Assembly (NCBI GenBank): GCA_947623455.1
Contig: OX392538.1
Coordinates: forward strand, 6,882,001-6,946,000
Reading direction: 5' to 3'
DNA length: 64,000 bases
Origin: Mimachlamys varia
Lineage: Eukaryota > Mollusca > Bivalvia > Pectinida > Pectinidae
The position numbers and the translations under genes were made by a program. Positions 1 through 25,005 of the stretch are shown here, piece by piece. Below the pieces are notes generated by a model that did not search any database, was not told the DNA's origin, and saw nothing but the letters and a program-made list of their open reading frames with translations. Every line of letters begins with the position of its first letter. Position 1 is the first letter of the stretch.

Positions 1-27
1 ATAGACGTAGGACAGCAGCTTATACTG
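1..27 (+). CDS. Integrin alpha, partial exon (end of propeller blade 1)
   Basis: The window appears to open inside an exon. Read in phase 0 the first 27 nt give IDVGQQLIL, followed by CTG|GTAAGT. Joined to the next exon this reads ...QQLIL-VCGHRW, which fits the strand that precedes the C-x-H-R-W motif at the end of integrin alpha blade 1. The call rests on the donor, the matching phase and this fit. Only nine residues are visible, so it is tentative. Confidence 0.6.
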
Positions 28-660
28 GTAAGTTTACAGGTCCCTGTGTTATACTGGTAAGTTTTCAGGTCCCTGTGTTATACTGTTAAGTTGTCAGGTC
101 CCTGTGTTATACTGTTAAGTTTTCAGGTCCCTGTGTTATACTGGTAAGTTTTCAGGTCCCTGTGTTATACTGGTAAGTTTTCAGGTCCCTGTGTTATACT
201 GTTAAGTTGTCAGGTCCCTGTGTTATACTGTTAAGTTTTCAGGTCCCTGTGTTAAACTGGTCAGTTTTCAGGCCCCTGTGTTACACTGGTAAATTTTCAG
301 ACCCCTGTATTGTACTGGTTAATTTTCAGGCCCATGTACATGTATTACACTGGTAAATTTTCAGGCCCCTGTGTTGCACTGGTAAATTTTCTGGCCCTAA
401 GTGTTGCACTGGTAAATTTTCAGGCCCTTGTATTGCATTTGTAAATTTTCAGACCCCTGTGTTACACTGGTAAAATTTCAGGCCCTTGTGTTACACTAGT
501 AAATTTTCAGGCCCCTGTGTTGTACTGGTAAATTTTCAGGCCCCTGTGTTGTACTGGTAAATTTTCAGGTCCATGTGTTCCAAGTACTGGTAAATTTTCA
601 GGCCCCTAGGCCTGTGTTCAAGTACTGGTAAATTTTCAGGTCCAAGTGTTATACTGGAAA
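28..660 (+). repeat. 29-bp minisatellite starting at the splice donor
   Basis: About 21 tandem copies begin at the first intron base. The unit reads GTAAGTTTTCAG, then GTCCCTGTG, then TTATACTG, so each copy carries the end of the upstream exon (TTATACTG) joined to a donor-like GTAAGT. Copies diverge steadily towards 660, with changes such as TTGTACTG and GTAAATTTTCAG. The unit also holds an acceptor-like TTTTCAG upstream of the next donor-like site. Its sequence resembles the 36-bp array at 9040-9800. Confidence 0.9.
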
Positions 661-899
661 TTTTTCAGGCATATGTTAATTGTATTAGATCTGTAAAGTG
701 ATTTGGAGTAGCTGATGTTAACTACATAGGGTACGTGCTATATCAAATTGTATATTTATTCATTTTATCTATTTATCAAATGTTCTATGTTTGTATGTGT
801 AAACTGAAATAATTCATGAGCAGCTTGAAACAATCTGTTTTTACCACTTTTTTAAAAACACAGACAATAGTGAATTAAACTTCATCTATTTGTCATCAG
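661..899 (+). other. Unique intron remainder and acceptor
   Basis: AT-rich single-copy intron sequence links the end of the 29-bp array to the acceptor TTTGTCATCAG at 889-899. I see no other element in it. Confidence 0.7.
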
Positions 900-1082
900 G
901 TATGTGGACATCGCTGGATGAGTGCTGATTACAACATGAACGGGATTTGTGTAGAATTAGGACGGGACTTTGCACAGATACGTGCTCGAAAATATCTGGT
1001 GGACCCAAATATGCAGACCGTCAATGATACCCTGATCTACAGTATTGGTGCTATGGGCATGTCATGTGCCTACGCCCCCACG
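900..1082 (+). CDS. Integrin alpha exon: propeller blade 2 (VCGHRW)
   Basis: This exon encodes 61 residues in phase 0-0, opening VCGHRWMSADYN and closing GMGMSC-type residues then AYAPT (read: GAMGMSCAYAPT). C-G-H-R-W is the conserved integrin alpha motif that follows blade 1. The cysteine near the end sits 15 residues before GAPG in the next exon, the spacing expected for integrin alpha chains, so the first donor (CCCACG|GTAAGT at 1083) is the one that makes a normal protein. The last 59 nt of this exon are the source of the array that follows. Confidence 0.92.
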
Positions 1083-4000
1083 GTAAGTCTATGATACCCT
1101 GATTTACAGTATTGGTGCTATGGGAATGTCATGTGCCTACGCCCCCACAGTAAGTCTATGATACCTTGATCTACAGTATTGTTGGTGCTATGGGCATGTC
1201 ATGTGCCTACGCCCCCACAGTAAGTCTATGATACCCTGATCTACAGTATTGGTGCTATGGGCATGTCATGTGCCTACGCCCCCACAGTAAGTCTATGATA
1301 CCCTGATCTACAGTATTGTTGGTGCTATGGGCATGTCATGTGCCTACGCCCCCACAGTAAGTCTATGATACCCTGATCTACAGTATTGGTGCTATGGGCA
1401 TGTCATGTGTCTACGCCCCCAAGGTTAGTCTATGATTCCCTGATCAACAGTATTGGTGCTATGGGCATGTCATGTGCATACGCCCCCAAGGTTAGTCTAT
1501 GATTCCCTGAACTATAGTATTGGTGCTATGGGCATGTCATGTGCCTACGCCCCCAAGTTTAGTCTATGATTCCCTGATCTACAGTATTGGTGCTATGGGC
1601 ATGTCATGTGCCTACGCCCCCACAGTAAGTCTATGATACCCTGATCTACAGTATTGGTGCTATGGGCATGTCATGTGCCTACTTCCCCACAATAAGTCTA
1701 TGATACCCTGATCTACAGTATTGTTAGTGCTATGGGCATGTCATGTGCCTACGCCCCCAAGGTTAGTGTATGATTCCCTGAACTATAGTATTGGTGCTAT
1801 GGGCATGTCATGTGCCTACGCCCCCACAGTAAGTCTATGATACCCTGATCTACAGTATTGGTGCTATGGGCATGTCATGTGCCTACGCCCCCACGGTAAG
1901 TCTATGATACCCTGATTTACAGTATTGGTGCTATGGGAATGTCATGTGCCTACGCCCCCACAGTAAGTCTATGATACCTTGATCTACAGTATTGTTGGTG
2001 CTATGGGCATGTCATGTGCCTACGCCCCCACAGTAAGTCTATGATACCCTGATCTACAGTATTGTTGGTGCTATGGGCATGTCATGTGCCTACGCCCCCA
2101 CAGTAAGTCTATGATACCCTGATCTACAGTATTGGTGCTATGGGCATGTCATGTGTCTACGCCCCCAAGGTTAGTCTATGATTCCCTGATCTACAGTATT
2201 GGTGCTATGGGCATGTCATGTGCATACGCCCCCAAGGTTAGTCTATGATTCCCTGAACTATAGTATTGGTGCTATGGGCATGTCATGTGCCTACGCCCCC
2301 AAGTTTAGTCTATGATTCCCTGATCTACAGTATTGGTGCTATGGGCATGTCATGTGCCTACGCCCCCACAGTAAGTCTATGATACCCTGATCTACAGTAT
2401 TGGTGCTATGGGCATGTCATGTGCCTACTTCCCCACGATAAGTCTATGATACCCTGATCTACAGTATTGTTAGTGCTATGGGCATGTCATGTGCCTACGC
2501 CCCCAAGGTTAGTGTATGATTCCCTGAACTATAGTATTGGTGCTATGGGCATGTCATGTGCCTACGCCCCCACAGTAAGTCTATGATACCCTGATCTACA
2601 GTATTGGTGCTATGGGCATGTCATGTGCCTACGCCCCCACAGTAAGTCTATGATACCCTGATTTACAGTATTGGTGCTATGGGAATGTCATGTGCCTACG
2701 CCCCCACAGTAAGTCTATGATACCTTGATCTACAGTATTGTTGGTGCTATGGGCATGTCATGTGCCTACGCCCCCACAGTAAGTCTATGATACCCTGATC
2801 TACAGTATTGGTGCTATGGGCATGCCATGTGCCTACGTCCCCACAGTAAGTCTATGATACCCTGATCTACAGTATTGGTGCTATGGGCATGTCATGTGCC
2901 TACGCCCCCACGGTAAGTCTATGATACCCTGATTTACAGTATTGGTGCTATGGGCATGTCATGTGCCTATGCCCCCACAGTAAGTCTATGATACCCTGAT
3001 CTACACTATTGGTGCTACGGGCATGTCATGTGCCTACACCCCACAGTAAGACTATGATACCCTGATCTACAGTATTGGTGCTATGGGCATGTCATGTGCT
3101 TACGCCCCCACAGTAAGTCTATGATACCCTGATCTACAGTATTGTTGGTGCTATGGGCATGTCATGTGCCTACTTCCCCACGATAAGTCTATGATACCTT
3201 GATCTACAGTATTGTTAGTGCTATGGGCATGTCATGTGCCTACGCCCCCAAGGTTAGTGTATGATTCCCTGAACTATATTATTGGTGCTATCGGCATGTC
3301 ATGTGCCTACGCCCCCACAGTAAGTCTATGATACCCTGATCTACAGTATTGGTGCTATGGGCATGTCATGTGCCTACGCCCCCACAGTAAGTCTATGATA
3401 CCCTGATCTACAGTATTGGTGCTATGGGCATGTCATGTGCCTACGCCCCCAAGGTTAGTCTATGATACCCTGATCTACAGTATTGGTGCTATGGGCATGT
3501 CATGTGCCTACGCTCCCACAGTTAGTCTATGATTCCCTGATCTACAGTATTGGTGCTATGGGCATGTCGTGTACCTATACGCCCCCACAGTAAGTCTATG
3601 ATGCCCTGATCTACAGTATTGGTGCTATGGGCATGTCATGTGCCTACGCCCCCACAGTAAGTCTATGATACCCTGATCTACAGTATTGGTGCTATGGGCA
3701 TGTCATGTGTCTACGCCCCCAAGGTTAGTCTATGATTCCCTGATCTACAGTATTGGTGCTATGGGCATGTCATGTGCATACGCCCCCAAGGTTAGTCTAT
3801 GATTCTCTGAACTATAGTATTGGTGCTATGGGCATGTCATGTGCCTACGCCCCCACGGTAAGTCTATGATTCCCTGATCTACAGTATTGGTGCTATGGGC
3901 ATGTCATGTGCCTACGCCCCCACAGTAAGTCTATGATACCCTGATCTACAGTATTGGTGCTATGGGCATGTCATGTGCCTACTTCCCCACGATAAGTCTA

Positions 4001-7000
4001 TGATACCCTGATCTACAGTATTGTTAGTGCTATGGGCATGTCATGTGCCTACGCCCCCAAGGTTAGTGTATGATTCCCTGAACTATAGTATTGGTGCTAT
4101 GGGCATGTCATGTGCATACGCCCCCACAGTAAGTCTATGATACCCTTATCTACAGTATTGGTGCTATGGGCATGTCATGTGCCTACTTCCCCACGGTAAG
4201 TCTATGATACCCTGATTTACAGTATTGGTGCTATGGGAATGTCATGTGCCTACGCCCCCACAGTAAGTCTATGATACCTTGATCTACAGTATTGTTGGTG
4301 CTATGGGCATGTCATGTGCCTACGCCCCCACAGTAAGTCTATGATACCCTGATCTACAGTATTGTTGGTGCTATGGGCATGCCATGTGCCTACGTCCCCA
4401 CAGTAAGTCTATGATACCCTGATCTACAGTATTGGTGCTATGGGCATGTCATGTGCCTACGCCCCCACGGTAAGTCTATGATACCCTGATTTACAGTATT
4501 GGTGCTATGGGCATGTCATGTGCCTATGCCCCCACAGTAAGTCTATGATACCCTGATCTACACTATTGGTGCTACGGGCATGTCATGTGCCTACGCCCCC
4601 ACAGTAAGTCTATGATACCCTGATCTACACTATTGGTGCTATGGGCATGTCATGTGCCTACGCCCCCACAGTAAGTCTATGATACCCTGATCTACAGTAT
4701 TGGTGCTATGAGCATGTCATGTGCCTATGCCCCACAGTAAGTCTATGATACCCTGATCTACAGTATTGTTGGTGCTATGGGCATGCCATATGCCTACGCC
4801 CCCACAGTAAGTCTATGATACCCTGATCTACAGTATTGGTGCTATGGGCATGTCATGTGCCTACGCCCCCAAGGTTAGTCTATGATTCCCTGATCTACAG
4901 TATTGGTGCTATGGGCATGTCATGTGCATACGCCCCCAAGGTTAGTGTATGATTCCCTGAACTATAGTATTTGTGCAATGGGCATGTCATGTGCCTACGC
5001 CCCCAAGGTTAGTCTATGATTTCCTGATCTACAGTATTGGTGCTATGAGCATGTCATGTGCCTAAGCCCCCACAGTAAGTCTATGATACCCTGATCTACA
5101 GTATTGGTGCTATGGGCATGTCATGTGCCTACTTCCCCACGGTAAGTCTATGATACCCTGATCTACAGTATTGTTGGTGCTATGGGCATGTCATGTGCCT
5201 ACGCCCCCAAGGTTAGTCTATGATTCCCTGATCTACAGTATTGGTGCTATGGGCATGTCATGTGCCTACGCCCCCACAGTAAGTCTATGATACCCTGATC
5301 TACAGTATTGTTGGTGCTATGGGCATGTCATGTGCCTACGCCCCCACAGTAAGTCTATGATACCCTGATCTACAGTATTGGTGCTATGGGCATGTCATGT
5401 GCCTACGCCCCCAAGGTTAGTCTATGATACCCTGATCTACAGTATTGGTGCTATGGGCATGTCATGTGCCTACGCTCCCACAGTTAGTCTATGATTCCCT
5501 GATCTACAGTATTGGTGCTATGGGCATGTCGTGTACCTATACGCCCCCACAGTAAGTCTATGATGCCCTGATCTACAGTATTGGTGCTATGGGCATGTCA
5601 TGTGCCTATGCCCCCACAGTAAGTCTATGATACCCTGATCTAGTACAGTATTGGTGCTATGGGCATGTCATGTGTCTACGCCCCCAAGGTTAGTCTATGA
5701 TTCCCTGATCTACAGTATTGGTGCTATGGGCATGTCATGTGCATACGCCCCCAAGGTTAGTCTATGATTCCCTGAACTATAGTATTGGTGCTATGGGCAT
5801 GTCATGTGCCTACGCCCCCAAGTTTAGTCTATGATTCCCTGATTTACAGTATTGGTGCTATGGGAATGTCATGTGCCTACGCCCCCACAGTAAGTCTATG
5901 ATACCCTGATCTACAGTATTGTTGGTGCTATGGGCATGCCATGTGCCTACGTCCCCACAGTAAGTCTATGATACCCTGATCTACAGTATTGGTGCTATGG
6001 GCATGTCATGTGCCTACGCCCCCACGGTAAGTCTATGATACCCTGATTTACAGTATTGGTGCTATGGGCATGTCATGTGCCTATGCCCCCACAGTAAGTC
6101 TATGATACCCTGATCTACACTATTGGTGCTACGGGCATGTCATGTGCCTACGCCCCCACAGTAAGTCTATGATACCCTGATCTACAGTATTGGTGCTATG
6201 GGCATGTCATGTGTCTACGCCCCCACAGTAAGTCTATGATACCCTGATCTACAGTATTGTTGGTGCTATGGGCATGTCATGTGCCTACGCCCCCACAGTA
6301 AGTCTATGATACCCTGATCTACAGTATTGGTGCTATGGGCATGTCATGTGCCTACGCCCCCAAGGTTAGTCTATGATACCCTGATCTACAGTATTGGTGC
6401 TATGGGCATGTCATGTGCCTACGCTCCCACAGTTAGTCTATGATTCCCTGATCTACAGTATTGGTGCTATGGGCATGTCGTGTACCTATACGCCCCCACA
6501 GTAAGTCTATGATGCCCTGATCTACAGTATTGGTGCTATGGGCATGTCATGTGCCTATGCCCCAACGGTAAGTCTATGATACCCTGATCTAGTACAGTAT
6601 TGGTGCTATGGGCATGTCATGTGTCTACGCCCCCAAGGTTAGTCTATGATTCCCTGATCTACAGTATTGGTGCTATGGGCATGTCATGTGCATACGCCCC
6701 CAAGGTTAGTCTATGATTCCCTGAACTATAGTATTGGTGCTATGGGCATGTCATGTGCCTACGCCCCCAAGTTTAGTCTATGATTCCCTGATCTACAGTA
6801 TTGGTGCTATGGGCATGTCATGTGCCTACGCCCCCACAGTAAGTCTATGATACCCTGATCTACATTATTGGTGCTATGGGCATGTCATGTGCCTACTTCC
6901 CCACGATAAGTCTATGATACCCTGATCTACAGTATTGTTAGTGCTATGGGCATGTCATGTGCCTACGCCCCCAAGGTTAGTGTATGATTCCCTGAACTAT

Positions 7001-8855
7001 AGTATTGGTGCTATGGGCATGTCATGTGCCTACGCCCCCACAGTAAGTCTATGATACCCTGATCTACAGTATTGGTGCTATGGGAATGTCATGTGCCTAC
7101 GCCCCCACAGTAAGTCTATGATACCTTGATCTACAGTATTGTTGGTGCTATGGGCATGTCATGTGCTTACGTCCCCACAGTAAGTCTATGATACCCTGAT
7201 CTACAGTATTGTTGGTGCTATGGGCATGTCATGTGCCTACGCCCCCACGGTAAGTCTATGATACCCTGATTTACAGTATTGGTGCTATGGGCATGTCATG
7301 TGCCTACGTCCCCACAGTAAGTCTATGATACCCTGATCTACAGTATTGGTGCTATGGGCATGTCATGTGCCTACGCCCCCACGGTAAGTCTATGATACCC
7401 TGATTTACAGTATTGGTGCTATGGGCATGTCATGTGCCTATGCCCCCACAGTAAGTCTATGATACCCTGATCTACACTATTGGTGCTACGGGCATGTCAT
7501 GTGCCTACACCCCCACAGTAAGTCTATGATACCCTGATCTACACTATTGGTGCTATGGGCATGTCATGTGCCTACGCCCCCACAGTAAGTCTATGATACC
7601 CTGATCTACACTATTGGTGCTATGGGCATGTCATGTGCCTACGCCCCCACAGTAAGTCTATGATACCCTGATCTACAGTATTGGTGCTATGGGCATGTCA
7701 TGTGCCTATGCCCCCACAGTAAGTCTATGATACCCTGATCTACAGTATTGTTGGTGCTATGGGCATGTCATGTGCCTATGCCCCCACAGTAAGTCTATGA
7801 TACCCTGATCTACAGTATTGGTGCTATGGGCATGTCATGAGCCTACGCCCCCAAGGTTAGTCTATGATTCCCTGATCTACAGTATTGGTGCTATGGGCAT
7901 GTCATGTGCATACGCCCCCAAGGTTAGTGTATGATTCCCTGAACTATAGTATTGGTGCAATGGGCATGTCATGTGCCTACGCCCCCAAGGTTAGTCTATG
8001 ATTTCCTGATCTACAGTATTGGTGCTATGAGCATGTCATGTGCCTAAGCCCCCACAGTAAGTCTATGATACCCTGATCTACAGTATTGGTGCTATGGGCA
8101 TGTCATGTTCCTACTTCCCCACGGTAAGTCTATGATACCCTGATCTACAGTATTGTTGGTGCTATGGGCATGTCATGTGCCTACGCCCCCAAGGTTAGTC
8201 TATGATTCCCTGATCTACAGTATTGGTGCTATGGGCATGTCATGTGCCTACGCCCCCAAGGTTAGTCTATGATACCCTGATCTACAGTATTGGTGCTATG
8301 GGCATGTCATGTGCCTACGCTCCCACAGTTAGTCTATGATTCCCTGATCTACAGTATTGGTGCTATGGGCATGTCGTGTACCTATACGCCCCCACAGTAA
8401 GTCTATGATGCCCTGATCTACAGTATTGGTGCTATGGGCATGTCATGTGCCTATGCCCCAACGGTAAGTCTATGATACCCTGATCTAGTACAGTATTGGT
8501 GCTATGGGCATGTCGTGTGCCTATACGCCCCCACAGTAAGTCTATGATACCCTGATCTACAGTATTGTTGGTGCTATGGGCATGTCATGTGCCTACGCCC
8601 CCACGGTAAGTCTATGATACCCTTATCTACAGTATTGGTGCTATGGGCATGTCATGTGCCTATGCCCCAACGGTAAGTCTATGATTCCCTGATCTACAGT
8701 ATTGGTGCTATGGTCATGTCATATGTGCCTACGCCCCCACAGTTAGTCTATGATACCCTGATCTACAGTATTGGTGCTATGGGCCTGTCATGTGCCTACG
8801 CCCCCACAGTAAGTCTATGATACCCTGATCTACAGTATTGGTGCTACGGGCATAC
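1083..8855 (+). repeat. 67/70-bp minisatellite made of exon end plus splice donor
   Basis: Roughly 115 head-to-tail copies fill 7.8 kb, starting at intron base 1. The unit is GTAAGTCT (first 8 nt of the intron) followed by a copy of exon positions 1024-1082 (ATGATACCCTGATCTACAG... to ...GCCTACGCCCCCAC). The 70-bp variant has a 3-bp insertion (TATTGTTGGTG instead of TATTGGTG). Donor-like sites are mostly CAG|TAAGTC, CGG|TAAGTC or AAG|GTTAGT variants. Blocks of about 12 units recur, for example the TTTACAG/GGGAATG variant near 1083 and again near 1892, so whole blocks have been copied. Read on from the exon, the frame meets a stop within four codons (GTA AGT CTA TGA), so use of a later donor would truncate the protein. 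Confidence 0.97.
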
Positions 8856-9039
8856 AGAACTTTGAGCTGAAAAGTTGTGGTAGATTGGTAATAGTAATTA
8901 CCACTACATTAAAGTGTTATGTGTATTTTTAAATTCTGTAAAGCCAAAATCAATGTAGAAATTACTTTGTTTTGGTAGAACTGTAGATTTGTACATCACA
9001 TTGGTAGGCAGAAAATTGGTCTGAAAAGCGGTAGACTAG

Positions 9040-9800
9040 TTCTTGATCTGGTAAGAATCTACAGGCCCCTGTGGGTTCTTGTTCTGTTAAGATTCTACAG
9101 GTCCCTGTGGGTTCTTGTTCTGGTGAGTATCTACAGGCCCCTGTGAGTTCTTGTTCTGGTGAGAATCTACAGACCCCTGTGGGTTCTTGTTCTGTTCAGA
9201 TTTTACAGGCCCCTGTGGATCTTGTTCTGGTGAGAATCTACAGGTCCCTGTGGGTTCTTGTTCTGGTGAGAATGTACAGGCCCTTGTGGGTTCTTGTTCT
9301 GTTCAGATTCTACAGGTCCCTGTGCCTTCTTGTTCTGGTGAGAATCTACAGGTCCCTGTGGGTTCTTGTTCTGGTGAGAATCTACAGGTCCCTGTGGGTT
9401 GTTGTTCTGGTGAGCATGTACAGAACCCCTGCAGGTTCTTGTTCTGGTGAGAATCTACAGGCCCCTGTGGGTTCTTGTTCTGGTGAGAATCTACAGGCCC
9501 CTGTGGGTTCTTGTTTTGGTGAGAATCAACAGGTCCCTGTGGGTTCTTGTTCTGGTTAGAATCTACAGATCCCTGTGGGTTTTTGTTCTGGTGAGCATGT
9601 ACACAGCCCCTGTGGATCTTGTTCTGGTGAGAATCTACAGGCCCCTGTGGGTTCTTGTTCTGGTCAGAATCTACAGGCCCCTGTGGATCTTGTTCTGGTG
9701 AGAATCTACAGGTCCCTGTGGAATCTTGTTCTGGTGAGCATGTACAGGCCCCTGTTACGTACGTGGGTTTTTGTTCTGGTGAGAATCTCCAGGCCCCTGT
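9040..9800 (+). repeat. 36-bp minisatellite with donor- and acceptor-like motifs
   Basis: About 21 copies of a unit reading GTGAGAATCTACAG, GCCCCTGTGG, GTTCTTGTTCTG lie near the 3' end of the same intron as the 67-bp array. Each unit has CTG|GTGAGAA (donor-like) and ATCTACAG|G (acceptor-like). The unit aligns loosely with the 29-bp array at 28-660 through GTAAG, CAGGTCCCTGTG and the terminal TCT/ACTG, suggesting shared ancestry. Open frames here on both strands are a consequence of the 36-bp period, which is a multiple of three. Confidence 0.93.
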
Positions 9801-10019
9801 GGTCATACATTGACATTTACTGGTTTATCATTTTAGCCTTTAAGAAACTATCATATATTTTCATATAGACATAGATCCTAGAAGAAGTTCTTATTGATAC
9901 ACTTGGGTTTACAGGTATGGATAGTGACCACTGACCACACTACTGATGTCTATATAGTTAATTCCTGTGACAGAACCATCATTTATTAACCTAACAATCA
10001 CTTTTTCTTTAATTTTTAG

Positions 10020-10077
10020 GGAAAATCAAGACTCATTGAGAAGGCTATTGGTGCCCCAGGAATATATGAAGCTACAG
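10020..10077 (+). CDS. Integrin alpha exon: GAPGIYEATG
   Basis: The exon follows the acceptor CTTTAATTTTTAG and ends GCTACAG|GTATTG. It is 58 nt (phase 0 in, phase 1 out) and encodes GKSRLIEKAIGAPGIYEAT plus one base. The G-A-P-G-x-Y motif is a typical FG-GAP blade ending. Its junctions are in phase with the exons at 900 and 11532, across introns holding an array on one side and a mobile element on the other. Confidence 0.9.
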
Positions 10078-10298
10078 GTATTGTATACATGTTTATCACA
10101 CTGTATAAGATTTCCCTCAAATTTCCACTTCAAATTATTCTCACAATAAAAGTTGCAATATTTGGTTGACATTCTGTGTGTTGCTAGGTAGCAGTGGTCT
10201 ATATGAAAACATCCACTGAGATTTTGTTTTTACAGTTATAGCATATATACATGTACCAGTCTGTATCCAAATGAAATGTTCACAGATTTTTTTTGTTT

Positions 10299-10329
10299 GG
10301 TCAGATAGAAATGTTCATGGACAGTTTTT
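10299..10329 (+). repeat. 31-bp direct repeat, left copy
   Basis: This segment (GGTCAGATAGAAATG ... ACAGTTTTT) is repeated without change at 11486-11516, immediately on the other side of the 1.15-kb element. It is either an unusually long target duplication or a rearrangement product. Confidence 0.9.
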
Positions 10330-11485: not shown

Positions 11486-11516
11486 GGTCAGATAGAAATG
11501 TTCATGGACAGTTTTT
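11486..11516 (+). repeat. 31-bp direct repeat, right copy
   Basis: It is identical to 10299-10329 across all 31 positions and ends 16 nt before the next exon (which starts at 11532). Confidence 0.9.
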
Positions 11517-13795: not shown

Positions 13796-13975
13796 ATATC
13801 GCTGTTGGTGCTCCGTACGAGGACGAAGGTCATGGAATCGTTTACATCTACAACGGCTATCAAGGAGGATTCTGGCCCATTGAGACACAGAGGATACAAG
13901 GGAGAGAATTAAACTTGTTGACATTCGGAGCTGCTATCTCTAAACCTTTCCTGTACAACAATGATAATTACCACG
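13796..13975 (+). CDS. Integrin alpha exon: blades 6-7 (DIAVGAPYED...ISKPFLYNNDNYH)
   Basis: The exon is 180 nt (phase 1 in, 1 out) and encodes DIAVGAPYEDEGHGIVYIYN, GYQGGFWPIETQRIQGRE and FGAAISKPFLYNNDNYH. It finishes blade 6 (A-V-G-A-P) and starts blade 7 with its N-N-D-N-Y-H loop. The annotated donor CCACG|GTAAGG at 13976 joins in phase to ATACACTGATTGGAGC at 20544, giving NYH-GDTLIGAF as expected for blade 7. Its last 50 nt are the template of the following array. Confidence 0.94.
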
Positions 13976-16900
13976 GTAAGGTCGGGGGCTATCTCTAAAC
14001 CTTTCCTGTACAACAATGATAATTACCACGGTAAGGTTGGGGGTGCTATCTCTAAACCTTTCCTGTACAACAATGATAATTACCACGGTAAGGTCAGAGT
14101 CGCTATCTCTAAACCTTTCCTGTACAACAATGATAATTACCACAGTAAGGTCGGAGGCGCTATCTCTAAACCTTTCCTGTACAACAATGATAATTACCAC
14201 GGTAAGGTCGGAGCAGCTATCTCTAAACCTTTCCTGTACAACAATGATAATTACCACGGTAAGGTCGGAGCCGCTATCTCTAAACCTTTCCTGTACAACA
14301 ATGATAATTACCACGGTAAGGTCAGAGTCGCTATCTCTAAACCTTTCCTGTACAACAATGATAATTACCACGGTAAGGTTGGGGGTGCTATCTCTAAACC
14401 TTTCCTGTACAACAATGATAATTACCATTGTAAGGTCGGAGTCGCTATCTCTAAACCTTTCCTGTACAACAATGATAATTACCACGGTAAGGTTGGAGTC
14501 GCTATCTCTAAACCTTTCCTGTACAACAATGATAATTACCAGGGTAAGGTCAGAGGTGCTATCTCTAAACCTTTCCTGTACAACAATGATAATTACCACG
14601 GTAAGGTCGGGGGCTATCTCTAAACCTTTCCTGTACAACAATGATAATTACCACGGTAAGGTCGGAGCCGCTATCTCTAAGCCTTTCCTGTACAACAATG
14701 ATAATTACCACGGTAAAGTCGGAGCCGCTATCTCTAAACCTTTCCTGTACAACAATGATAATTACCACGGTAAGGTTGGGGGTGCTATCTCTAAACCTTT
14801 CCTGTACAACAATGATAATTACCATTGTAAGGTCGGAGTCGCTATCTCTAAACCTTTCCTGTACAACAATGATAATTACCACGGTAAGGTTGGAGTCGCT
14901 ATCTCTAAACCTTTCCTGTACAACAATGATAATTACCAGGGTAAGGTCAGAGGTGCTATCTCTAAACCTTTCCTGTACAACAATGATAATTACCACGGTA
15001 AGGTCGGAGCCGCTATCTCTAAACCTTTCCTTTACAACAATGATAATTACCACGGTAAGGTCGGAGCCGCTATCTCTAAACCTTTCCTGTACAACAATGA
15101 TAATTACCACGGTAAAGTCGGAGCCGCTATCTCTAAACCTTTCCTGTACAACAATGATAATTACCACGGTAAGGTCGGAGCTGCTATCTCTAAACCTTTC
15201 CTGTACAACAATGATAATTACCACGGTAAGGTCGGAGCCGTTATCTCTAAACCTTTCCTTTACAACAATGATAATTACCACGGTAAGGTCGGAGTCGCTA
15301 TCTCTAAACCTTTCCTGTACAACAGTGATAATTACCACGGTAAGGTCGGAGCCGTTATCTCTAAACCTTTCCTGTACAACAATGATAATTACCTCGGTAA
15401 GGTCGGGGCTATCTCTAAACCTTTCCTGTACAACAATGATAATTACCATTGTAAGGTCGGAGTCGCTATCTCTAAACCTTTCCTGTACAACAATGATAAT
15501 TACCACGGTAAGGTCGGAGCCGCTATCTCTAAACCTTTCCTGTACAACAATGATAATTACCACAGTAAGGTCGGAGGTGCTATCTCTAAACCTTTCCTGT
15601 ACAACAATGATAATTACCATGGTAAGGTCGGAGCCGTTATCTCTAAACCTTTCCTGTACAACAATGATAATTACCACGGTAAGGTCGGAGCCGTTATCTC
15701 TAAACCTTTCCTTTACAACAATGATAATTACCACGGTAAGGTCGGAGTCGCTATCTCTAAACCTTTCCTGTACAACAGTGATAATTACCACGGTAAGGTC
15801 GGAGCCGTTATCTCTAAACCTTTCCTGTACAACAATGATAATTACCTCGGTAAGGTCGGGGCTATCTCTAAACCTTTCCTGTACAACAATGATAATTACC
15901 ATTGTAAGGTCGGAGTCGCTATCTCTAAACCTTTCCTGTACAACAATGATAATTACCACGGTAAGGTCGGAGCCGCTATCTCTAAACCTTTCCTGTACAA
16001 CAATGATAATTACCACAGTAAGGTCGGAGGTGCTATCTCTAAACCTTTCCTGTACAACAATGATAATTACCATGGTAAGGTCGGAGCCGTTATCTCTAAA
16101 CCTTTCCTGTACAACAATGATAATTACCACGGTAAGGTCGGAGCCGCTATCTCTAAACCTTTCCTGTACAACAATGATAATTACCACGGTAAGGTCGGAG
16201 CTGCTATCTCTAAACCTTTCCTGTACAACAATGATAATTACCACGGTAAGGTCGGTGGCTATCTCTAAACCTTTCCTGTACAACAATGATAATTACCACG
16301 GTAAGGTCGGAGCCGTTATCTCTAAACCTTTCCTGTACAACAATGATAATTACCACGGTAAGGTCGGGGGCTATCTCTAAACCTTTCCTGTACAACAATG
16401 ATAATTACCATTGTAAGGTCGGAGTCGCTATCTCTAAACCTTTCCTGTACAACAATGATAATTACCACGGTAAGGTTGGAGTCGCTATCTCTAAACCTTT
16501 CCTGTACAACAATGATAATTACCAGGGTAAGGTCGGAGGTGCTATCTCTAAACCTTTCCTGTACAACAATGATAATTACCACGGTAAGGTCGGGGGCTAT
16601 CTCTAAACCTTTCCTGTACAACAATGATAATTACCACGGTAAGGTCGGAGCCGCTATCTCTAAACCTTTCCTGTACAACAATGATAATTACCACGGTAAA
16701 GTCGGAGCCGCTATCTCTAAACCTTTCCTGTACAACAATGATAATTACCACGGTAAGGTCATAGTCGCTATCTCTAAACCTTTCCTGTACAACAGTGATA
16801 ATTACCACGGTAAGGTCATAGTCGCTATCTCTAAACCTTTCCTGTACAACAATGATAATTTCCACAGTAAGGTCGGAGTTGCTATCTCTAAACCTTTCCT

Positions 16901-19400
16901 GTACAACAATGATAATTACCACTGTAAGGTCGGAGCCGCTATCTCTAAACCTTTCCTGTACAACAATGATAATTACCACGGTAAGGTCGGAGCCGCTATC
17001 TCTAAACCTTTCCTTTACAACAATGATAATTACCACGGTAAGGTCGGGGGCTATCTCTAAACCTTTCCTGTACAACAATGATAATTACCATTGTAAGGTC
17101 GGAGTCGCTATCTCTAAACCTTTCCTGTACAACAATGATAATTACCACGGTAAGGTCGGAGCTGTTATCTCTAAACCTTTCCTGTACAACAATGATAATT
17201 ACCACAGTAAGGTCGGAGCCTTTATCTCTAAACCTTTCCTGTACAACAATGATAATTACCACGGTAAGGTCGGAGCTGCTATCTCTAAACCTTTCCTGTA
17301 CAACAATGATAATTACCACGGTAAGGTCGGAGCCGTTATCTCTAAACCTTTCCTGTACAACAATGATAATTACCACGGTAAGGTCAGAGTCGCTATCTCT
17401 AAACCTTTCCTGTACAGCAGTGATAATTACCACGGTAAGGTCGGAGCCGTTATCTCTAAACCTTTCCTGTACAACAATGATAATTACCTCGGTAAGGTCG
17501 GGGCTATCTCTAAACCTTTCCTGTACAACAATGATAATTACCATTGTAAGGTCGGAGTCGCTATCTCTAAACCTTTCCTGTACAACAATGATAATTACCA
17601 CGGTAAGGTCGGAGCCGCTATCTCTAAACCTTTCCTGTACAACAATGATAATTACCACAGTAAGGTCGGAGGTGCTATCTCTAAACCTTTCCTGTACAAC
17701 AATGATAATTACCACGGTAAGGTCGGAGCCGTTATCTCTAAACCTTTCCTGTACAACAATGATAATTACCACGGTAAGGTCGGGGGCTATCTCTAAACCT
17801 TTCCTGTACAACAATGATGATTACCACGGTAAGGTCGGAGCTGCTATCTCTAAACCTTTCCTGTACAACAATGATAATTACCACGGTAAGGTCGGTGGCT
17901 ATCTCTAAACCTTTCCTGTACAACAATGATAATTACCACGGTAAGGTCGGAGCCGTTATCTCTAAACCTTTCCTGTACAACAATGATAATTACCACGGTA
18001 AGGTCGGGGGCTATCTCTAAACCTTTCCTGTACAACAATGATAATGACCACGGTAAGGTCGAAGCCGTTATCTCTAAACCTTTCCTTTACAACAATGATA
18101 ATTACCACGGTAAGGTCGGGGGCTATCTCTAAACCTTTCCTGTACAACAATGATAATTACCACGGTAAGGTCGGAGCCGTTATCTCTAAACCTTTCCTGT
18201 ACAACAATGATAATTACCACGGTAAGGTCGGGGGCTATCTCTATACCTTTTCTGTACAACAATGATAATTACCACGGTAAGGTCGGAGCCGTTATCTCTA
18301 AACCTTTCCTGTACAACAATGATAATTACCACGGTAAGGTCGGAGCCGCTATCTCTAAACCTTTCCTGTACAACAATGATAATTACCACAGTAAGGTCGG
18401 AGGTGCTATCTCTAAACCTTTCCTGTACAACAATGATAATTACCACGGTAAGGTCGGAGCCGTTATCTCTAAACCTTTCCTGTACAACAATGATAATTAC
18501 CACGGTAAGGTCGGGGGCTATCTCTAAACCTTTCCTGTACAACAATGATAATTACCACGGTAAGGTCGGAGCTGCTATCTCTAAACCTTTCCTGTACAAC
18601 AATGATAATTACCACGGTAAGGTCGGTGGCTATCTCTAAACCTTTCCTGTACAACAATGATAATTACCACGGTAAAGTCGGAGCCGTTATCTCTAAACCT
18701 TTCCTGTACAACAATGATAATTACCACGGTAAGGTCGGGGGCTATCTCTAAACCTTTCCTGTACAACAATGATAATTACCACGGTAAGGTCGGAGCCGTT
18801 ATCTCTAAACCTTTCCTTTACAACAATGATAATTACCACGGTAAGGTCGGGGGCTATCTCTAAACCTTTCCTGTACAACAATGATAATTACCACGGTAAG
18901 GTCGGGGGCTATCTCTAAACCTTTCCTGTACAACAATGATAATTACCACGGTAAGGTCGGGGGCTATCTCTAAACCTTTCCTGTACAACAATGATAATTA
19001 CCACGGTAAGGTCGGGGGCTATCTCTATACCTTTCCTGTACAACAATGATAATTACCACGGTAAGGTCGGGGGCTATCTCTAAACCTTTCCTGTACTACA
19101 ATGATAATTACCACGGTAAGGTCGGAGCTGTTATCTCTAAACCTTTCCTGTACAACAATGATAATTACCACGGTAAGGTCGGAGCCGTTATCTCTAAACC
19201 TTTCCTGTACAACAATGATAATTACCACAGTAAGGTTGGAGCCGCTATATCTAAACCTTTCCTGTACAACAGTGATAATTACCATGGTAAGGTCGGAGCC
19301 GCTATCTCTAAACCTTTCCTGTACAACAATGATAATTACCACAGTAAGGTCGGAGCGGCTATCTCTAAACTTTTCCTGTACAACAATGATAATTACCACG
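13976..19400 (+). repeat. 55/57-bp minisatellite made of exon end plus splice donor
   Basis: About 96 tandem copies begin at intron base 1. The unit is GTAAGGT from the intron plus a copy of exon positions 13926-13975 (CGGAGCTGCTATCTCTAAAC ... GATAATTACCACG). Full units are 57 bp (19 codons), and short units with GTCGGGGGCTATC are 55 bp. Blocks of eight units recur at 453-bp spacing, marked by AACAGTG at 15321 and 15774. Nearly every unit carries CACG|GTAAGG. Long frames on both strands (up to 750 codons) are an artefact of the 57-bp period. From the exon, the frame stops at TAA in the first short unit. Confidence 0.97.
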
Positions 19401-19429
19401 TTACATTTCAAAAGTAGCAATAACTGACG

Positions 19430-19515
19430 TCCATCTTGAGTCTGTCAACTTGTCCTTTAAACAACTTCTGCTGAAATACCGAAAGCCTAGAAACATGATA
19501 TTTTGCTGGGAGTTA
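19430..19515 (+). mobile_element. Fragment of the 145-bp-repeat element family
   Basis: The string TTTAAACAACTTCTGCTGAA, then ATACCGAAAGCC, TAGAAACATGATATTTTGCT and GGGAGTT match the repeat unit found at 38683-42048 and 51941-53741. Only about half a unit is left. Confidence 0.7.
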
Positions 19516-19530
19516 TCATGGAACACATAG

Positions 19531-20019
19531 TACCGTAATTTCCTGCATATTACCCGCACCGGGGTAGAGCCCACGGGAAGTAAATTTAGGCGTTTTTGTG
19601 TCTTTTGTAAAATAAATTCCAGATAACTCGCACTGGCAGATTGCGCACGTGTTATACGTCAAATGTATACCTAGTGAGTACAAGTGTACTTTGTATGTGA
19701 CTTTGTGATTTATTGTTTTGAATGTTGGAATTCAGAGACATATGATGAAAATACTGTGTTGATTTTGTAAATAATTTATATGTTTATGAGTATAATTAAA
19801 GCTATATATAAACTTATCAATGATATATTTTGTTTATAAATAGCATAGATCTACATGTTGATAAAAGTGGAAACATTAAACAACGTAAAGCCCACATTTT
19901 TTTTTAATAATTTGGTAGAAAAATCCACAGATAGTCCGTACTGGCAGATAGCCTGCACTAGACATCTGCGGATGTAAAAAATCATAGAGCACGCAGGCAA
20001 TATGCAGGAAAGTATGGTA
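19531..20019. mobile_element. MITE-like element with ~27-bp inverted ends
   Basis: The left end TACCGTAATTTCCTGCATAT is mirrored by ATATGCAGGAAAGTATGGTA at the right end, with GCCCGCA/TGCGGGC-type sequence inside. The element is 489 bp with no coding capacity, so it is probably a non-autonomous DNA transposon. The match between the ends is imperfect and I could not fix the target duplication. Confidence 0.65.
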
Positions 20020-20111
20020 GCTGATTGAGCTGATAGGGGCAAAAGTGATGATTTACCTCAAACGATAAATTATTTTAATAAAGTATTAGGAATAAGATTC
20101 ATGAATGATTT

Positions 20112-20486
20112 ATACTGAGTTTGTTTTGTACACAAAAAGGAATTGAAAACGTCCAAATGTACTCTAATACTTCAGGTAGACAGAGGGATGGGTAAGATGT
20201 TTACCCATTCCGCCCCTTAGCATCCAATAAGGGGCGGAATGGGTAAACATCTTACCCGTCCCTCTGTCTACCTGTAGGATTAGAGCACATTTGGACAAAA
20301 TATCATGCTGCGTTTTTGACAGCTGACTTCTCTAACTCGCTCTATTTTGGGTAGTGACCTGATTTCAGCAGTCATAACACGGACACTTGGCTAATGTTTT
20401 CTTTGCTTGACAAAGGAAACAGACTTTTTCGAAAGCTTGCAAATTAACTTTTCAATTACTGTTTGTGTACAAAACGAACTCAGTAT
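20112..20486. mobile_element. Fold-back MITE with long palindrome
   Basis: The outer arms ATACTGAGTTTGTTTTGTAC and GTACAAAACGAACTCAGTAT are inverted copies. Inside them a near-perfect palindrome spans about 20151-20295: GGTAGACAGAGGGATGGGTA ... CCGCCCCTTA, a loop of about 10 nt, then the inverse. The right arm is interrupted by about 165 bp of unrelated sequence after TTTGGAC, so the structure is lopsided. No coding sequence is present. Confidence 0.8.
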
Positions 20487-20543
20487 ATATTTCAATTAAG
20501 AGTGAATAATTACAGGTATATTGATATGTTTAATGTATTACAG

Positions 20544-20729
20544 ATACACTGATTGGAGCTTTTATGTCTGATAAGGCTGTGTTGATTTACTCCAAACCAA
20601 CCATCAACATGAAGGTCACTCTGACAGTGGGTGCCACGGTAACTAATGACATCATCAGACAGGATACAGAAACTTTCACCATAGAGGTGTGCTTCTCCTA
20701 CCAGGGACAGGATCTCCCAAACGAAGCTG
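20544..20729 (+). CDS. Integrin alpha exon: end of blade 7 and start of thigh domain
   Basis: The exon is 186 nt (phase 1 in, 1 out) and encodes DTLIGAFMSDKAVLIYSKPT, then INMKVTLTVGATVTND, IIRQDTETFTIEV, CFSYQGQDLPNEA. G-A-F-x-S-D-x-A-V-L-x-x-S-x-P is the signature that closes the propeller and leads into the thigh Ig-like domain. The C-F-S-Y-Q-G strand is typical of the thigh domain. The borders are TATTACAG|ATAC and GAAGCTG|GTGGGT. Confidence 0.95.
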
Positions 20730-21466
20730 GTGGGTACACAACCTTAATGGCTCGTGTGGTACTTGTCTCTAAAATATGAAATAAGATTATAATATTATAT
20801 GGCCAAAAAAAAAATATGTATGTTTTAGGTATTTCGACTGACCCTATACCGCCAACCCTAGCTGCTTGATCACCATCTTGCATCTAAGGTTAATATATGA
20901 GCCTGGCAAAACTCACAGCAACTCAATACAATGTGCTTCCTTCCTGTTCTGGGAGTCTGACCTTGTTCTAGACAACCTAATAGCCACTGAAATGTGTGGA
21001 AATGTATTGTAAAAATTTGAAATGAAGCAAAGAATCAATTTACAAAGAATTTTTTTTAAAAATTAACATAATTCACCTACCAACCTACACTATTGTTTTC
21101 AGGCATGCTACCTGAAACATTCCTCTCTCACCATCAAAAGAGAGATATCAGAAGGCTGTAGTGCCTTATTGTAGTTACTATAGGTATAACAAGTCATTGA
21201 TTAATATATGGATGGCATCATATGATGTCAAACATTTTTTTCACCAAACAACTTCAGCCAATCATAATTTTAAATTTCATTTACGGTGCAAAACAGTATG
21301 GTATAGGTAATCACTTTTTTTGTTGTTTCTATTTTAATTTACTTGGTATGACCTAAAGAAAGTCCAGCATTTGGGGAATTCTAACCCTCTATCAGTGATA
21401 GATTGCAATCAGTTTGTTTGTATTTTCACTCGTTACATAATGTTGATTGTATTTCACGTTTTTCAG

Positions 21467-21621
21467 TTGTGGAGTTTATGATAGATATTGACACCAACTC
21501 AACAGGGAAACGTCGCCGAGTCGTACTGGAAAGTGGGAGTTACAATGTCAGTGGCAGCAAAATTGTACAGAAGGCATTACAGCAAACCTGTTTCCTCCCT
21601 CCTTATACTGTCCTAGTACAG
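21467..21621 (+). CDS. Integrin alpha exon: thigh domain (VVEFMIDIDTNSTGKRRR)
   Basis: The exon is 155 nt (phase 1 in, 0 out) and encodes VVEFMIDIDTNSTGKRRRVV, LESGSYNVSGSKIVQ, KALQQTCFLPPYTVLVQ. It carries the thigh motif of a basic R-R-R-V stretch followed by a cysteine. Using the first donor (GTACAG|GTGAGT at 21622), the cysteine is 13 residues before DLFVPL in the next exon, the natural spacing. The last 29 nt seed the 36-bp array. N-x-S/T sites at DTNST and YNVS are possible glycosylation sites. Confidence 0.93.
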
Positions 21622-24600
21622 GTGAGTGTCCTACCTCCTTATACTGTCCTAGTACAGGTGAGTGTCCTACCTCCTTATACTGCCCTAGTACAGGTGAGTG
21701 TCCTACCTCCTTATACTGTCCTAGTACAGGTGAGTGTCCTACCTCCTTAAACTGTCCTGGTGCAGGTGAGTGTCCTACCTCCTTATACTGTCCCAGAACA
21801 GGTGAGTGTCCTACCTCCTTATACTGTCCTAGTACAGGTGAGTGTCCTACCTCCTTATACTGTCCTAGTACAGGTGAGTGTCCTACCTCCTTAAACTGTC
21901 CTGGTGCAGGTGAGTGTCCTACCTCCCTATACTGTCCCAGAACAGGTGAGTGTCCTACCTCCTTATACTGTCCCAGAACAGGTGAGTGTCCTACCTCCTT
22001 ATACTGTCCTAGTACAGGTGAGTGTCCTACCTCCCTATACTGTTCTAGTACAGGTGAGTGTCCTACCTCCTTATACTGTCCTAGTACAGGTGAGTGTCCT
22101 ACCTCCTTATACTGTCCTAGTACAGGTGAGTGTCCTACCTCCTTATACTGTCCTAGTACAGGTGAGTGTCCTACCTCCTTAAACTGTCCTGGTGCAGGTG
22201 AGTGTCCTACCTCCTTATACTGTCCTAGTACAGGTGAGTGTCCTACCTCCTTAAACTGTCCTGGTGCAGGTGAGTGTCCTACCTCCCTATACTGTCCTAG
22301 TACAGGTGAGTGTCCTAACTCCATGTACTGTCCTAGTAGAGGTGAGTGTCCTACCTCCCTTTACTGTCCTAGAACAGGTGAGTGTCCTACCTCCCTATAC
22401 TGTTCTAGTACAGGTGAGTGTCCTACCTCCCTATACTGTTCTAGTACAGGTGAGTGTCCTACCTCCTTATACTGTCCTAGTACAGGTGAGTGTCCTACCT
22501 CCTTAAACTGTCCTGGTGCAGGTGAGTGTCCTACCTCCTTATACTGTCCCAGAACAGGTGAGTGTCCTACCTCCTTATACTGTCCTAGTACAGGTGAGTG
22601 TCCTACCTCCTTATACTGTCCTAGTACAGGTGAGTGTCCTACCTCCTTAAACTGTCCTGGTGCAGGTGAGTGTCCTACCTCCCTATACTGTCCCAGAACA
22701 GGTGAGTGTCCTACCTCCTTATACTGTCCCAGAACAGGTGAGTGTCCTACCTCCTTATACTGTCCTAGTACAGGTGAGTGTCCTACCTCCCTATACTGTT
22801 CTAGTACAGGTGAGTGTCCTACCTCCTTATACTGTCCTAGTACAGGTGAGTGTCCTACCTCCTTATACTGTCCTAGTACAGGTGAGTGTCCTACCTCCTT
22901 ATACTGTCCTAGTACAGGTGAGTGTCCTACCTCCTTAAACTGTCCTGGTGCAGGTGAGTGTCCTACCTCCTTATACTGTCCTAGTACAGGTGAGTGTCCT
23001 ACCTCCTTAAACTGTCCTGGTGCAGGTGAGTGTCCTACCTCCCTATACTGTCCTAGTACAGGTGAGTGTCCTAACTCCATGTACTGTCCTAGTAGAGGTG
23101 AGTGTCCTACCTCCCTTTACTGTCCTAGAACAGGTGAGTGTCCTACCTCCCTATACTGTTCTAGTACAGGTGAGTGTCCTACCTCCCTATACTGTTCTAG
23201 TATAGGTGGGTGTCCTACCTCCCTTTACTGTCCTAGTACAGGTGAGTGTTCTACCTCCTTATACTGTTCTAGTACAGGTGAGTGTCCTACCTCCTTATAC
23301 TGTTCTAGTACAGGTGAGTGTCCTACCTCCCTATACTGTCCTAGTACAGGTGAGTGTTCTACCTCCCTATACTGTTCTAGTACAGGTGAGTGTCCTACCT
23401 CCCTATACTGTTCTAGTACAGGTGAGTGTCATACCTCCCTATACTGTCCTAGTGCAGGTGACTGTCCTACCTCCTTATACTGTCCTAGTACAGGTGAGTG
23501 TCCTACCTCCCTATACTGTCCTAGTACAGGTGAGTGACCTACCTCCCTATACTGTCTTAGTACAGGTGAGTGTTCTACCTCCCTATACTGTCCTAGTACA
23601 GGTGAGTGTTCTACCTCCCTATACTGTCCTAGTGCAGGTGAGTGTCCTACCTCCCTATACTGTCCTAGTGCAGGTGAGTGACCTACCTCCCTATACTGTC
23701 CTAGTACAGGTGAGTGTTCTACCTCCCTTTACTGTCCTAGTACAGGTGAGTGTTCTACCTCCCTATACTGTCCTAGTACAGGTGAGTGTTCTACCTCCTT
23801 ATACTGTCCTAGTACAGGTGAGTGTCCTACCTCCTTATACTGTCCTAGTACAGGTGAGTGTCCTACCTCCTTAAACTGTCCTGGTACAGGTGAGTGTCCT
23901 ACCTCCCTATACTGTCCTAGTACAGGTGAGTGTCCTACCTCCCTATACTGTCCTAGTACAGGTGAGTGTCCTACCTCCCTATACTGTTCTAGTACAGGTG
24001 AGTGTCCTACCTCCCTATACTGTTCTAGTACAGGTGAGTGTCCTACCTCCCTATACTGTTCTAGTACAGGTGAGTGTCCTACCTCCCTATACTGTCCTAG
24101 TACAGGTGAGTGTCCTACCTCCCTATACTGTTCTAGTACAGGTGAGTGTCCTACCTCCCTATACTGTCCTAGTACAGGTGAGTGTTCTACCTCCCTATAC
24201 TGTCCTAGTACAGGTGAGTGTCCTACCTCCCTATACTGTTCTAGTACAGGTGAGTGTCCTACCTCCCTATACTGTTCTAGTACAGGTGAGTGTCCTACCT
24301 CCCTATACTGTCCTAGTACAGGTGAGTGTCCTACCTCCCTATACTGTTCTAGTACAGGTGAGTGTCCTACCTCCCTATACTGTCCTAGTACAGGTGAGTG
24401 TCCTACCTCACTATACTGTCTTAGTACAGGTGAGTGTCCTACCTCCTTATACTGTTCTAGTACAGGTGAGTTTCCTACCTCCCTATACTGTTCTAGTACA
24501 GGTGAGTGTCCTACCTCCCTATACTGTCCTAGTACAGGTGAGTGTCCTACCTCCTTATACTGTTCTAGTACAGGTGAGTGTCCTACCTCACTATACTGTT

Positions 24601-25005
24601 CTAGTACAGGTGAGTGACCTACCTCTCAGTACTGTCCTAGTACAGGTGAGTGTCCTACCTCCCTTTACTGTCCTAGTACAGGTGAGTGTCCTACCTCCTT
24701 ATACTGTCCTAGTACAGGTGAGTGACCTACCTTCCTATACTGTCCTAGTACAGGTGAGTGTCCTACCTCCTTATACTGTCCTAGTACAGGTGAGTGTCCT
24801 ACCTCCCTTTACTGTCCTAGTACAGGTGAGTGTCCTACCTCCTTATACTGTCCTAGTACAGGTGAGTGACCTATCTCTCGATACTGTCCTAGTACATGTG
24901 AGTGTCCTACCTCCCTTTACTGTCCCAGTACAGGTGAGTGACCTACCTTCCTATACTGTCCTAGTACAGGTGAGTGACCTACCTCTCAGTACTGTCCTAG
25001 TACAA
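21622..25005 (+). repeat. 36-bp minisatellite made of exon end plus splice donor
   Basis: About 94 copies start at intron base 1. The unit is GTGAGTG plus TCCTACCTCCTTATACTGTC and CTAGTACAG, the last 29 nt being a slightly changed copy of the exon end. Every unit holds a near-ideal donor, CAG|GTGAGT. The period is 12 codons and the intron starts in phase 0, so units read VSVLPPYTVLVQ in frame until a CTTAAACTG variant gives TAA at 21748. A 756-bp block of 21 units is duplicated (21904 onward versus 22660 onward). Long frames on both strands here are not independent genes. Confidence 0.97.

What the first reader, a model, noticed from the sequence alone, without database searches (positions are those of the whole stretch)
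1..25005. Minisatellites that copy the exon-intron junction: splice donors in tandem in four introns of one gene
Seen directly: after the exons ending at 27, 1082, 13975 and 21621 the intron becomes a tandem array at its first base. In three cases the unit is the last 59, 50 or 29 nt of the exon plus the first 8, 7 or 7 nt of the intron. In the fourth only about 8 nt of exon is evident. The true 5' splice site is thus repeated about 21, 115, 96 and 94 times. Known background: tandem duplication across an AGGT site is a proposed route of intron gain. Inference: either duplications that span the junction are tolerated because an intact donor always remains, or a local process targets donor sites. 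Four separate events in one gene argue against simple chance.
Basis: partly seen in the sequence, partly recalled or inferred. Interest (0 to 1): 0.88.

Follow-up and report, generated by a model that had tools for sequence, protein, structure and literature searches.

The report
Minisatellites straddling exon-intron boundaries
In one integrin gene of a minisatellite-rich animal genome, the ends of several exons together with their splice sites have been copied about a hundred times into the following intron, a known but rarely described kind of repeat that probably survives because the first copy of the splice site still works.

Summary
Window 1-45668 carries most of an integrin alpha gene. 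At three donors (exons ending 1082, 13975, 21621) the exon tail plus a few intron bases is repeated about 116, 97 and 95 times. The array in intron 1 shares only 8 nt with its exon and belongs to a family found on other chromosomes, so it is not a clear junction copy. Over all four arrays GT is intact in 313 of 323 extra donors, but donor columns are better conserved than the rest of the unit in only one. The arrays are non-coding. An acceptor-side array lies just upstream. Three or four of 72 myosin exons have comparable donor arrays. The genome is full of minisatellites (35 arrays, 17% of 160 kb), and GTAAGT is not unusual in tandem triples (second of four same-composition hexamers). This matches amphioxus 'mirages' (PMC3087553). 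Best reading: ordinary minisatellite birth across splice junctions, tolerated because the exon-proximal site remains. Donor targeting is not supported, though array-bearing donors are stronger than average.

The parts
1..45668 (+). 3' part of an integrin alpha gene; 19 exons in view (E1 1-27, its start upstream of the window; E2 900-1082, E3 10020-10077, E4 11532-11704, E5 12031-12093, E6 13070-13234, E7 13533-13638, E8 13796-13975, E9 20544-20729, E10 21467-21621, E11 25192-25344, E12 25981-26441, E13 30304-30481, E14 31167-31232 (3' end uncertain), E15 36342-36506, E16 36823-36942, E17 42945-43055, E18 43915-44034, E19 45399-45668)
1020..8853 (+). array A2: 67-bp unit (59-63 nt of exon 2 tail + 4-8 nt of intron), 115.6 copies; GT kept at 110 of 115 positions including the authentic one
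13925..19400 (+). array A3: 57-bp unit (exon 8 tail + donor), 96.9 copies; GT kept at 96 of 96 including the authentic one
21593..25004 (+). array A4: 36-bp unit (29 nt of exon 10 tail + 7 nt of intron), 94.8 copies; GT kept at 94 of 94 including the authentic one
20..669 (+). array A1: 29-bp unit covering the exon 1 donor, 21.7 copies; only 8 nt of exon shared; core CAGGYCCCTGTGTTA belongs to a dispersed minisatellite family; GT kept at 17 of 22 including the authentic one
9039..9800 (+). second array of the A1-type family, inside intron 2 (TRF end 9755, pattern matches to 9801), unit core CTGGTGAGAATCTACAGGCCCCTGTG; not at an exon
1083..1088 (+). authentic donor of exon 2 (ACG|gtaagt), first of the tandem series
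13976..13981 (+). authentic donor of exon 8 (ACG|gtaagg), first of the tandem series
21622..21627 (+). authentic donor of exon 10 (CAG|gtgagt), first of the tandem series

Best explanation
These are 'mirage' minisatellites: a short tandem duplication arose across an exon-intron boundary, and unequal exchange or slippage then grew it to about a hundred copies. It is tolerated because the exon-proximal copy of the splice site stays intact and everything beyond it is removed with the intron. Shown: position, unit make-up, copy number in this assembly, donor retention, in-frame stops just past each authentic donor, block duplications inside the arrays, similar arrays at other exons of the genome, and a minisatellite-rich background. 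Inferred: that the exon-proximal donor is the one used, that seeding was helped by short matches between donor and exon, and that no function is involved.
For: Junction 24-mers recur 112, 96 and 94 times at three of 18 donors. The unit equals exon tail plus donor. Stops in the exon frame lie 10, 21 and 127 nt past donors 2, 8 and 10 (31 nt for donor 1), so most downstream donors would break the protein. Donor columns are no better conserved than the rest in A1-A3 (P 0.71-0.76; A4 P 0.027), so copies look passively homogenised. Block duplications inside arrays, longest exact repeats 349, 509 and 762 bp. Similar donor arrays at 4 of 72 myosin exons (L046, L063, L055, L075) and an acceptor-side array at the exon before E1. 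35 arrays in 160 kb of arbitrary stretches. Published precedent with normal splicing: amphioxus mirages (passages of PMC3087553, and PMC3902484). Short matches at the breakpoint: GTC in A2, AAGTA in L075, imperfect GT.TCCT in A4; none evident in A3.
Against: No RNA was available, so use of the first donor is not shown; in A4, 88 of 93 extra donors score at least as well as the authentic one. Tolerance alone does not explain why array-bearing donors are among the strongest: ranks 1, 3, 4 and 5 of 18 in this gene (scores; one-sided P about 0.002 with A1, 0.013 without, counted by hand), and in myosins P = 0.006 or 0.026 (with L099 added and unresolved donors dropped), abutting cases counted as array-bearing in both. 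It also does not explain why the intron share of A2 and A4 is only 4-8 nt. L075 stays open in frame and could be coding.
Confidence: 0.76

Rival explanations
1. A process targets splice donors (for example template switching or repair at donor DNA or at U1-bound nascent RNA), so duplications arise preferentially at strong donors.
For: Donors with arrays are stronger than others in this gene (scores) and in myosins (MWU P = 0.006, 0.026). Of 90 donors examined (18 + 72) 6-7 have clear arrays; of 90 acceptors only L087, a weak case; the one clear acceptor array (E0) lies upstream of the window. Five of 12 array units in this window beat shuffles for a donor motif at P < 0.05.
Against: Genome-wide tandem GTAAGT triples (151,206) lie between same-composition hexamers TGTAGA (167,088) and AGATGT (101,661), TGAATG having 31,907. 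Donor motifs not enriched in 35 arrays elsewhere. Automated edge test P = 0.24. L063 and L055 have longer intron parts (about 17 and 49 nt of 33- and 73-bp units) and A3 and L046 up to 12 nt.
Confidence: 0.1
2. The arrays do something: a string of donors recruits U1 snRNP, protecting a long intron from premature polyadenylation or aiding its definition.
For: GT intact in 313 of 323 extra donors over the four arrays.
Against: Donor columns are not better conserved than neighbours in three of four arrays; most A2 donors are weaker than the authentic one (14 of 114 equal or better). The donor-less array at 26721-30104 is about as long as A4.
Confidence: 0.07
3. Assembly error has inflated or created the arrays.
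For: Exact internal repeats of up to 762 bp in A4 could reflect mis-stitching; copy numbers are therefore uncertain.
Against: Units differ (61, 43 and 34 distinct sequences among 116, 97 and 95 in A2, A3 and A4); the same architecture appears at unrelated loci.
Confidence: 0.05
4. Downstream donors are used, giving length-variable or truncated integrin isoforms, as downstream repeat units are in human IFI6.
For: A4 units are 36 nt and the frame is open for the first three extra donors (stop at 127 nt); equal donor strength; IFI6 precedent (PMC4526556 passage).
Against: In A2 and A3 a stop lies 10 and 21 nt past the authentic donor, and one A1 unit (29 nt) shifts the frame.
Confidence: 0.1

Closest known systems
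Amphioxus 'mirage' minisatellites (Adh3, globins BflGb6 and BflGb9; also TnC and PGBD5)
   Same: [quoted passage not shown] PMC3902484 passages)
Human IFI6 (G1P3) minisatellite with multiple splice donor sites (Turri et al. 1995)
   Same: Minisatellite at an exon-intron junction whose units carry donors
   Different: Downstream units are used there and give isoforms (PMC4526556 introduction passage); no such evidence here. Original paper not held; its title was seen in reference lists only
Intron gain by tandem duplication of AGGT segments (Rogers model; ATP2A1; potato RdRp)
   Same: Tandem duplication carrying splice signals (PMC4974935, passages seen)
   Different: There the duplicate supplies both splice sites of a new intron; here the acceptor lies 0.2-1.2 kb beyond the array (A1 230 bp, A2 1.2 kb, A3 1.1 kb, A4 0.2 kb)

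Membership tests
mirage minisatellite | repeat unit spans an exon-intron boundary and includes exon sequence | tested here: met
   A2, A3 and A4. A1 only 8 nt, so not clear
mirage minisatellite | many units keep the splice signal | tested here: met
   GT in 110/115, 96/96 and 94/94 positions
mirage minisatellite | either boundary can be affected | tested here: met
   acceptor-side array at L009 8337-8710, ten matches of the ACAG|GATTTTGATTGG-type junction, the authentic one included
mirage minisatellite | regular splicing not disturbed | not testable with these tools
   no RNA data; a continuous integrin frame results if the first donor is used
mirage minisatellite | length instability between haplotypes or cells | not testable with these tools
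   single assembly; internal block duplications are consistent
mirage minisatellite | described in cephalochordates | tested here: inconclusive
   organism unnamed; 975 Mb in 71 contigs, about twice amphioxus by recollection
intron gain by AGGT duplication | duplicate supplies both splice sites of a newly gained intron | tested here: not met
   acceptors of introns 1, 2, 8 and 10 (900, 10020, 20544, 25192) lie outside the arrays; whether these introns are new was not testable
IFI6-type minisatellite | downstream units used as alternative donors | not testable with these tools
   no RNA data

The most novel reading that the evidence does not exclude
Strong splice donors are themselves hot spots for tandem duplication in this genome: a donor pairs with a donor-like stretch in the exon upstream (GTC, AAGTA, GT.TCCT), seeding arrays whose intron share is only the donor itself, so that several per cent of strong donors come to lie at the head of a minisatellite and act as a standing source of exon-length change and intron gain.
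Probability: 0.12. Interest if true: 0.75.

Novelty: new member of a known kind. Interest (0 to 1): 0.46.

Why it matters
The mirages I found described are in amphioxus, with few copies where a number was given. Here three arrays of about 100 copies sit in one gene, and 3-4 of 72 exons of an unrelated gene family show the same thing, so junction-spanning minisatellites may be a regular feature of minisatellite-rich animal genomes. They give natural constructs with about a hundred near-identical 5' splice sites in cis, in which the rule for choosing among equal donors can be read from RNA, and they offer raw material for exon extension and intron gain.

Tried and rejected
Rejected: (a) translated repeats: stops in the exon frame at 10-127 nt past each authentic donor; in A4 observed allele types syn/non/stop 7/19/2 against 32/73/3 possible. 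(b) Selection on donor copies: not seen in A1-A3; weak in A4. (c) Donor enrichment genome-wide: the 4.7-fold excess of GTAAGT over its reversed control looked striking, but a second search gave AGATGT and TGTAGA counts on both sides of it, so the excess reflects one low control. Only these three control hexamers were counted genome-wide. (d) A1 as a junction duplication: its family is dispersed. (e) 'Donors only': contradicted by the acceptor array. (f) L057 and L099 (myosin) share 6 and 3 nt with their exons and count only as abutting; L087 is a weak acceptor case. A BLAST script for other unit copies in the window printed nothing, although searches found one A1-type copy at 58295, so that null is worthless. 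One scan of viral contigs for the A4 unit: 0 matches. Rfam: 0 matches in the window.

Counts and omissions: of 74 myosin exon places, 60 were fetched and 12 more analysed; 2 were not analysed (one only partly fetched, one inside L075). Some of the 72 hits have stops inside, and in 11 the donor was not resolved. One search stopped on an error and was rerun. In one search the donor of L055 was set 5 nt too early, so its exon match is 19-24 nt. The donor matrix is recalled, not taken from a call. Comparison with related species was not possible: the protein database is off and no relatives of this genome are held. Papers: six searches failed; those answered are. No claim is made that this is unpublished in this species.
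Full report
What the sequence shows. The window lies at C12:6882001-6946000 of a 975,302,275-base genome in 71 contigs. Window 1-45668, + strand, carries the 3' part of an integrin alpha gene. Nineteen exons with GT-AG borders splice to one open frame. Pfam finds integrin Ig-like domains 1 and 2 and an FG-GAP repeat; the best solved-structure match is integrin alpha-4, E = 4.6e-47, its alignment running across the exon 1/2, 8/9 and 10/11 joins; the CGFFKR tail matches PF00357. The exon borders at issue are therefore donors by homology, although no RNA was seen. Exon 14's 3' end is uncertain.

The arrays. TRF finds arrays at 20-669, 1020-8853, 13925-19400 and 21593-25004 with units of 29, 67, 57 and 36 bp and 21.7, 115.6, 96.9 and 94.8 copies. 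The 24-mer across the donor recurs in the window (at least 18 of 24 matching) 112, 96 and 94 times for exons 2, 8 and 10. It recurs 0 times for the other 15 donors; of 18 acceptors 17 have none and one has a single distant match. The match between exon and first intron unit covers at least 63 nt for A2 (four mismatches), 43 for A3's first, shorter, unit and 29 for A4, but only 8 for A1. The array thus begins inside the exon; that it seems to begin at intron base 1 is what any junction-spanning duplication gives.

Array 1 is different. Its unit core is shared with the array at 9039-9800 in intron 2, with one stretch at 58295, and with places on C7, C10, C11, C14 and C15 (30 matches listed, 2 of them the window itself). 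The arrays read in L003 and L008 carry CAGGYCCCTGTGTTA cores, L003 on the other strand (consensus units, reversed by eye). The TTATAC shared with exon 1 may therefore belong to a dispersed family, and I count three clear junction arrays, not four.

State of the copies. GT is intact at 17 of 22, 110 of 115, 96 of 96 and 94 of 94 donor positions, the authentic one included. Equal or better than the authentic donor are 3 of 21, 14 of 114, 68 of 95 and 88 of 93 extra copies. Donor columns are not better conserved than the rest of the unit in A1, A2 and A3 (P 0.73, 0.76, 0.71); in A4 they are (P 0.027). The exon frame meets a stop 31, 10, 21 and 127 nt past the authentic donors, so the arrays do not code and most downstream donors would break the protein. 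Arrays contain exact internal repeats of 349, 509 and 762 bp (A2, A3, A4), as expected of growth by block duplication; exact copy numbers depend on the assembly.

Outside the finding's coordinates. The exon before E1 (L009 8698-8822, window -1302 to -1178; ILIGAPRGN) has an acceptor-side array immediately upstream: 35-bp units carrying TTTTACAG|GATTTTGATTGG, 10.7 copies by TRF, ten junction-like matches by pattern with the authentic one included. A 26-bp array with CAG|GTGTGT units starts about 7 nt past its donor. So both boundaries can be affected.

Other genes. A Pfam myosin-head search gave 74 exon places. I examined 72. Clear donor-junction arrays: L046 (LLDKIVQ|gtaagt, at least 32 nt of exon), L063 (EQQILQ|gtgagt, 16 nt), L055 (DEECK|gtaagg, 19-24 nt, 2.6 copies) and L075 (RILE, 73 nt, frame stays open so possibly coding). 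The L046 and L063 arrays fill at least another 796 and 799 of the next 800 bases. L057 and L099 abut donors with 6 and 3 nt of exon; L087 is a weak acceptor case. Four of the six donor cases (L046, L057, L063, L075) sit at the intron after the P-loop exon of different myosin loci (peptides; 'P-loop' recalled); I did not count how many such exons the sample holds.

Is it more than chance? Placing the gene's ten arrays at random gives 0.53-0.57 donor-spanning arrays; at least four has P = 0.0012 and at least three 0.011-0.015; no acceptor-spanning array, as in the window, has P = 0.52-0.55. But the gene was chosen for this feature. The less biased checks are weaker: in 72 myosin exons an automated edge test gave 3 donor-straddling arrays (L055, L063, L099) against 1.7 expected, P = 0.24, and 1 acceptor against 1.8; it misses L046, L057 and L075. 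Background is high: 35 arrays covering 27,465 of 160,000 bases in 16 arbitrary stretches, with strong donor motifs in 2 units against 1.9 in shuffles. In this window 5 of 12 array units, four of them A1, A3, A4 and the A1-type array at 9039, beat shuffles at P < 0.05. Tandem triples of GTAAGT number 80,479 + 70,727 genome-wide against 14,724 + 17,183 for the reversed hexamer, but AGATGT gives 49,493 + 52,168 and TGTAGA 83,136 + 83,952. GTAAGT is second of four, so there is no sign that donors attract arrays genome-wide; these counts are of matches, not of arrays. In the 160 kb sample GTAAGT ranks 40th of 90 such hexamers, with a single triple.

What is left over. Array-bearing donors are strong: ranks 1, 3, 4 and 5 of 18 in this gene (scores; 7 of 3060 rank sets as extreme, counted by hand; without A1, 11 of 816). 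In myosins P = 0.006 (five cases) or 0.026 (six cases, unresolved donors dropped), abutting cases included; the other exons' donors were picked by script and some are doubtful. The scoring matrix is recalled. A2, A4 and L075 have only 2-8 nt of intron in the unit, with short donor-exon matches at the breakpoint; L063 and L055 have more. These could reflect survivorship, since a strong first donor tolerates competitors, or seeding through donor-like exon sequence.

Comparison with what is known. Ebner et al. 2010 (PMC3087553; [quoted passage not shown] PMC3902484 (passages) adds PGBD5 and TnC. Human IFI6 has a minisatellite with multiple splice donors whose downstream units are used (PMC4526556 passage; the original not held). 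The AGGT intron-gain model (PMC4974935 passages) differs: here the acceptors lie outside the arrays. The finding is thus a large-scale member of the mirage kind.

Verdict. A real, well-described observation; three clear arrays and one look-alike; a known kind of repeat on an unusual scale; most likely a by-product of a minisatellite-rich genome, tolerated by splicing.

Noticed in passing
L009 8337-8710 (window -1663 to -1290): Acceptor-side mirage: intron tail plus first 12 nt of an upstream integrin exon repeated about ten times.
   Followed up: yes
L009 8829-9560 (window -1171 to -440): 26-bp array with CAG|GTGTGT units starting about 7 nt into the intron of the same exon.
   Followed up: partly
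L046, L057, L063, L075: Four myosin loci have arrays at or next to the donor of what looks like the homologous intron after the P-loop exon.
   Followed up: partly
window 26721-30104: 37-bp array, 91.5 copies, in the integrin intron after exon 12, without donor motif.
   Followed up: no
window 33480-34888: 31-bp array, 45 copies, with donor-like CCG|GTAGGG in the consensus unit, deep inside an intron.
   Followed up: partly
window 31245-31458: 49-bp repeat starting just after the uncertain end of exon 14; possibly another donor-adjacent array.
   Followed up: partly
window 38799-41808, 52029-53741; L009 4652-6352: 145-bp repeat family (CCTTTAAACGACTTCTTCTGAAATACC...) in at least three places in and near this gene; looks like tandem repeats inside a mobile element.
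   Followed up: no
L024 569-1133: Apparent coding exon with a 21-bp repeat, followed by an array starting about 14 nt into the next intron.
   Followed up: partly
L018 6474-8105: 55-bp array, 30 copies, with CAG|GTGGGT in the consensus, starting about 46 nt past a possible exon donor.
   Followed up: partly
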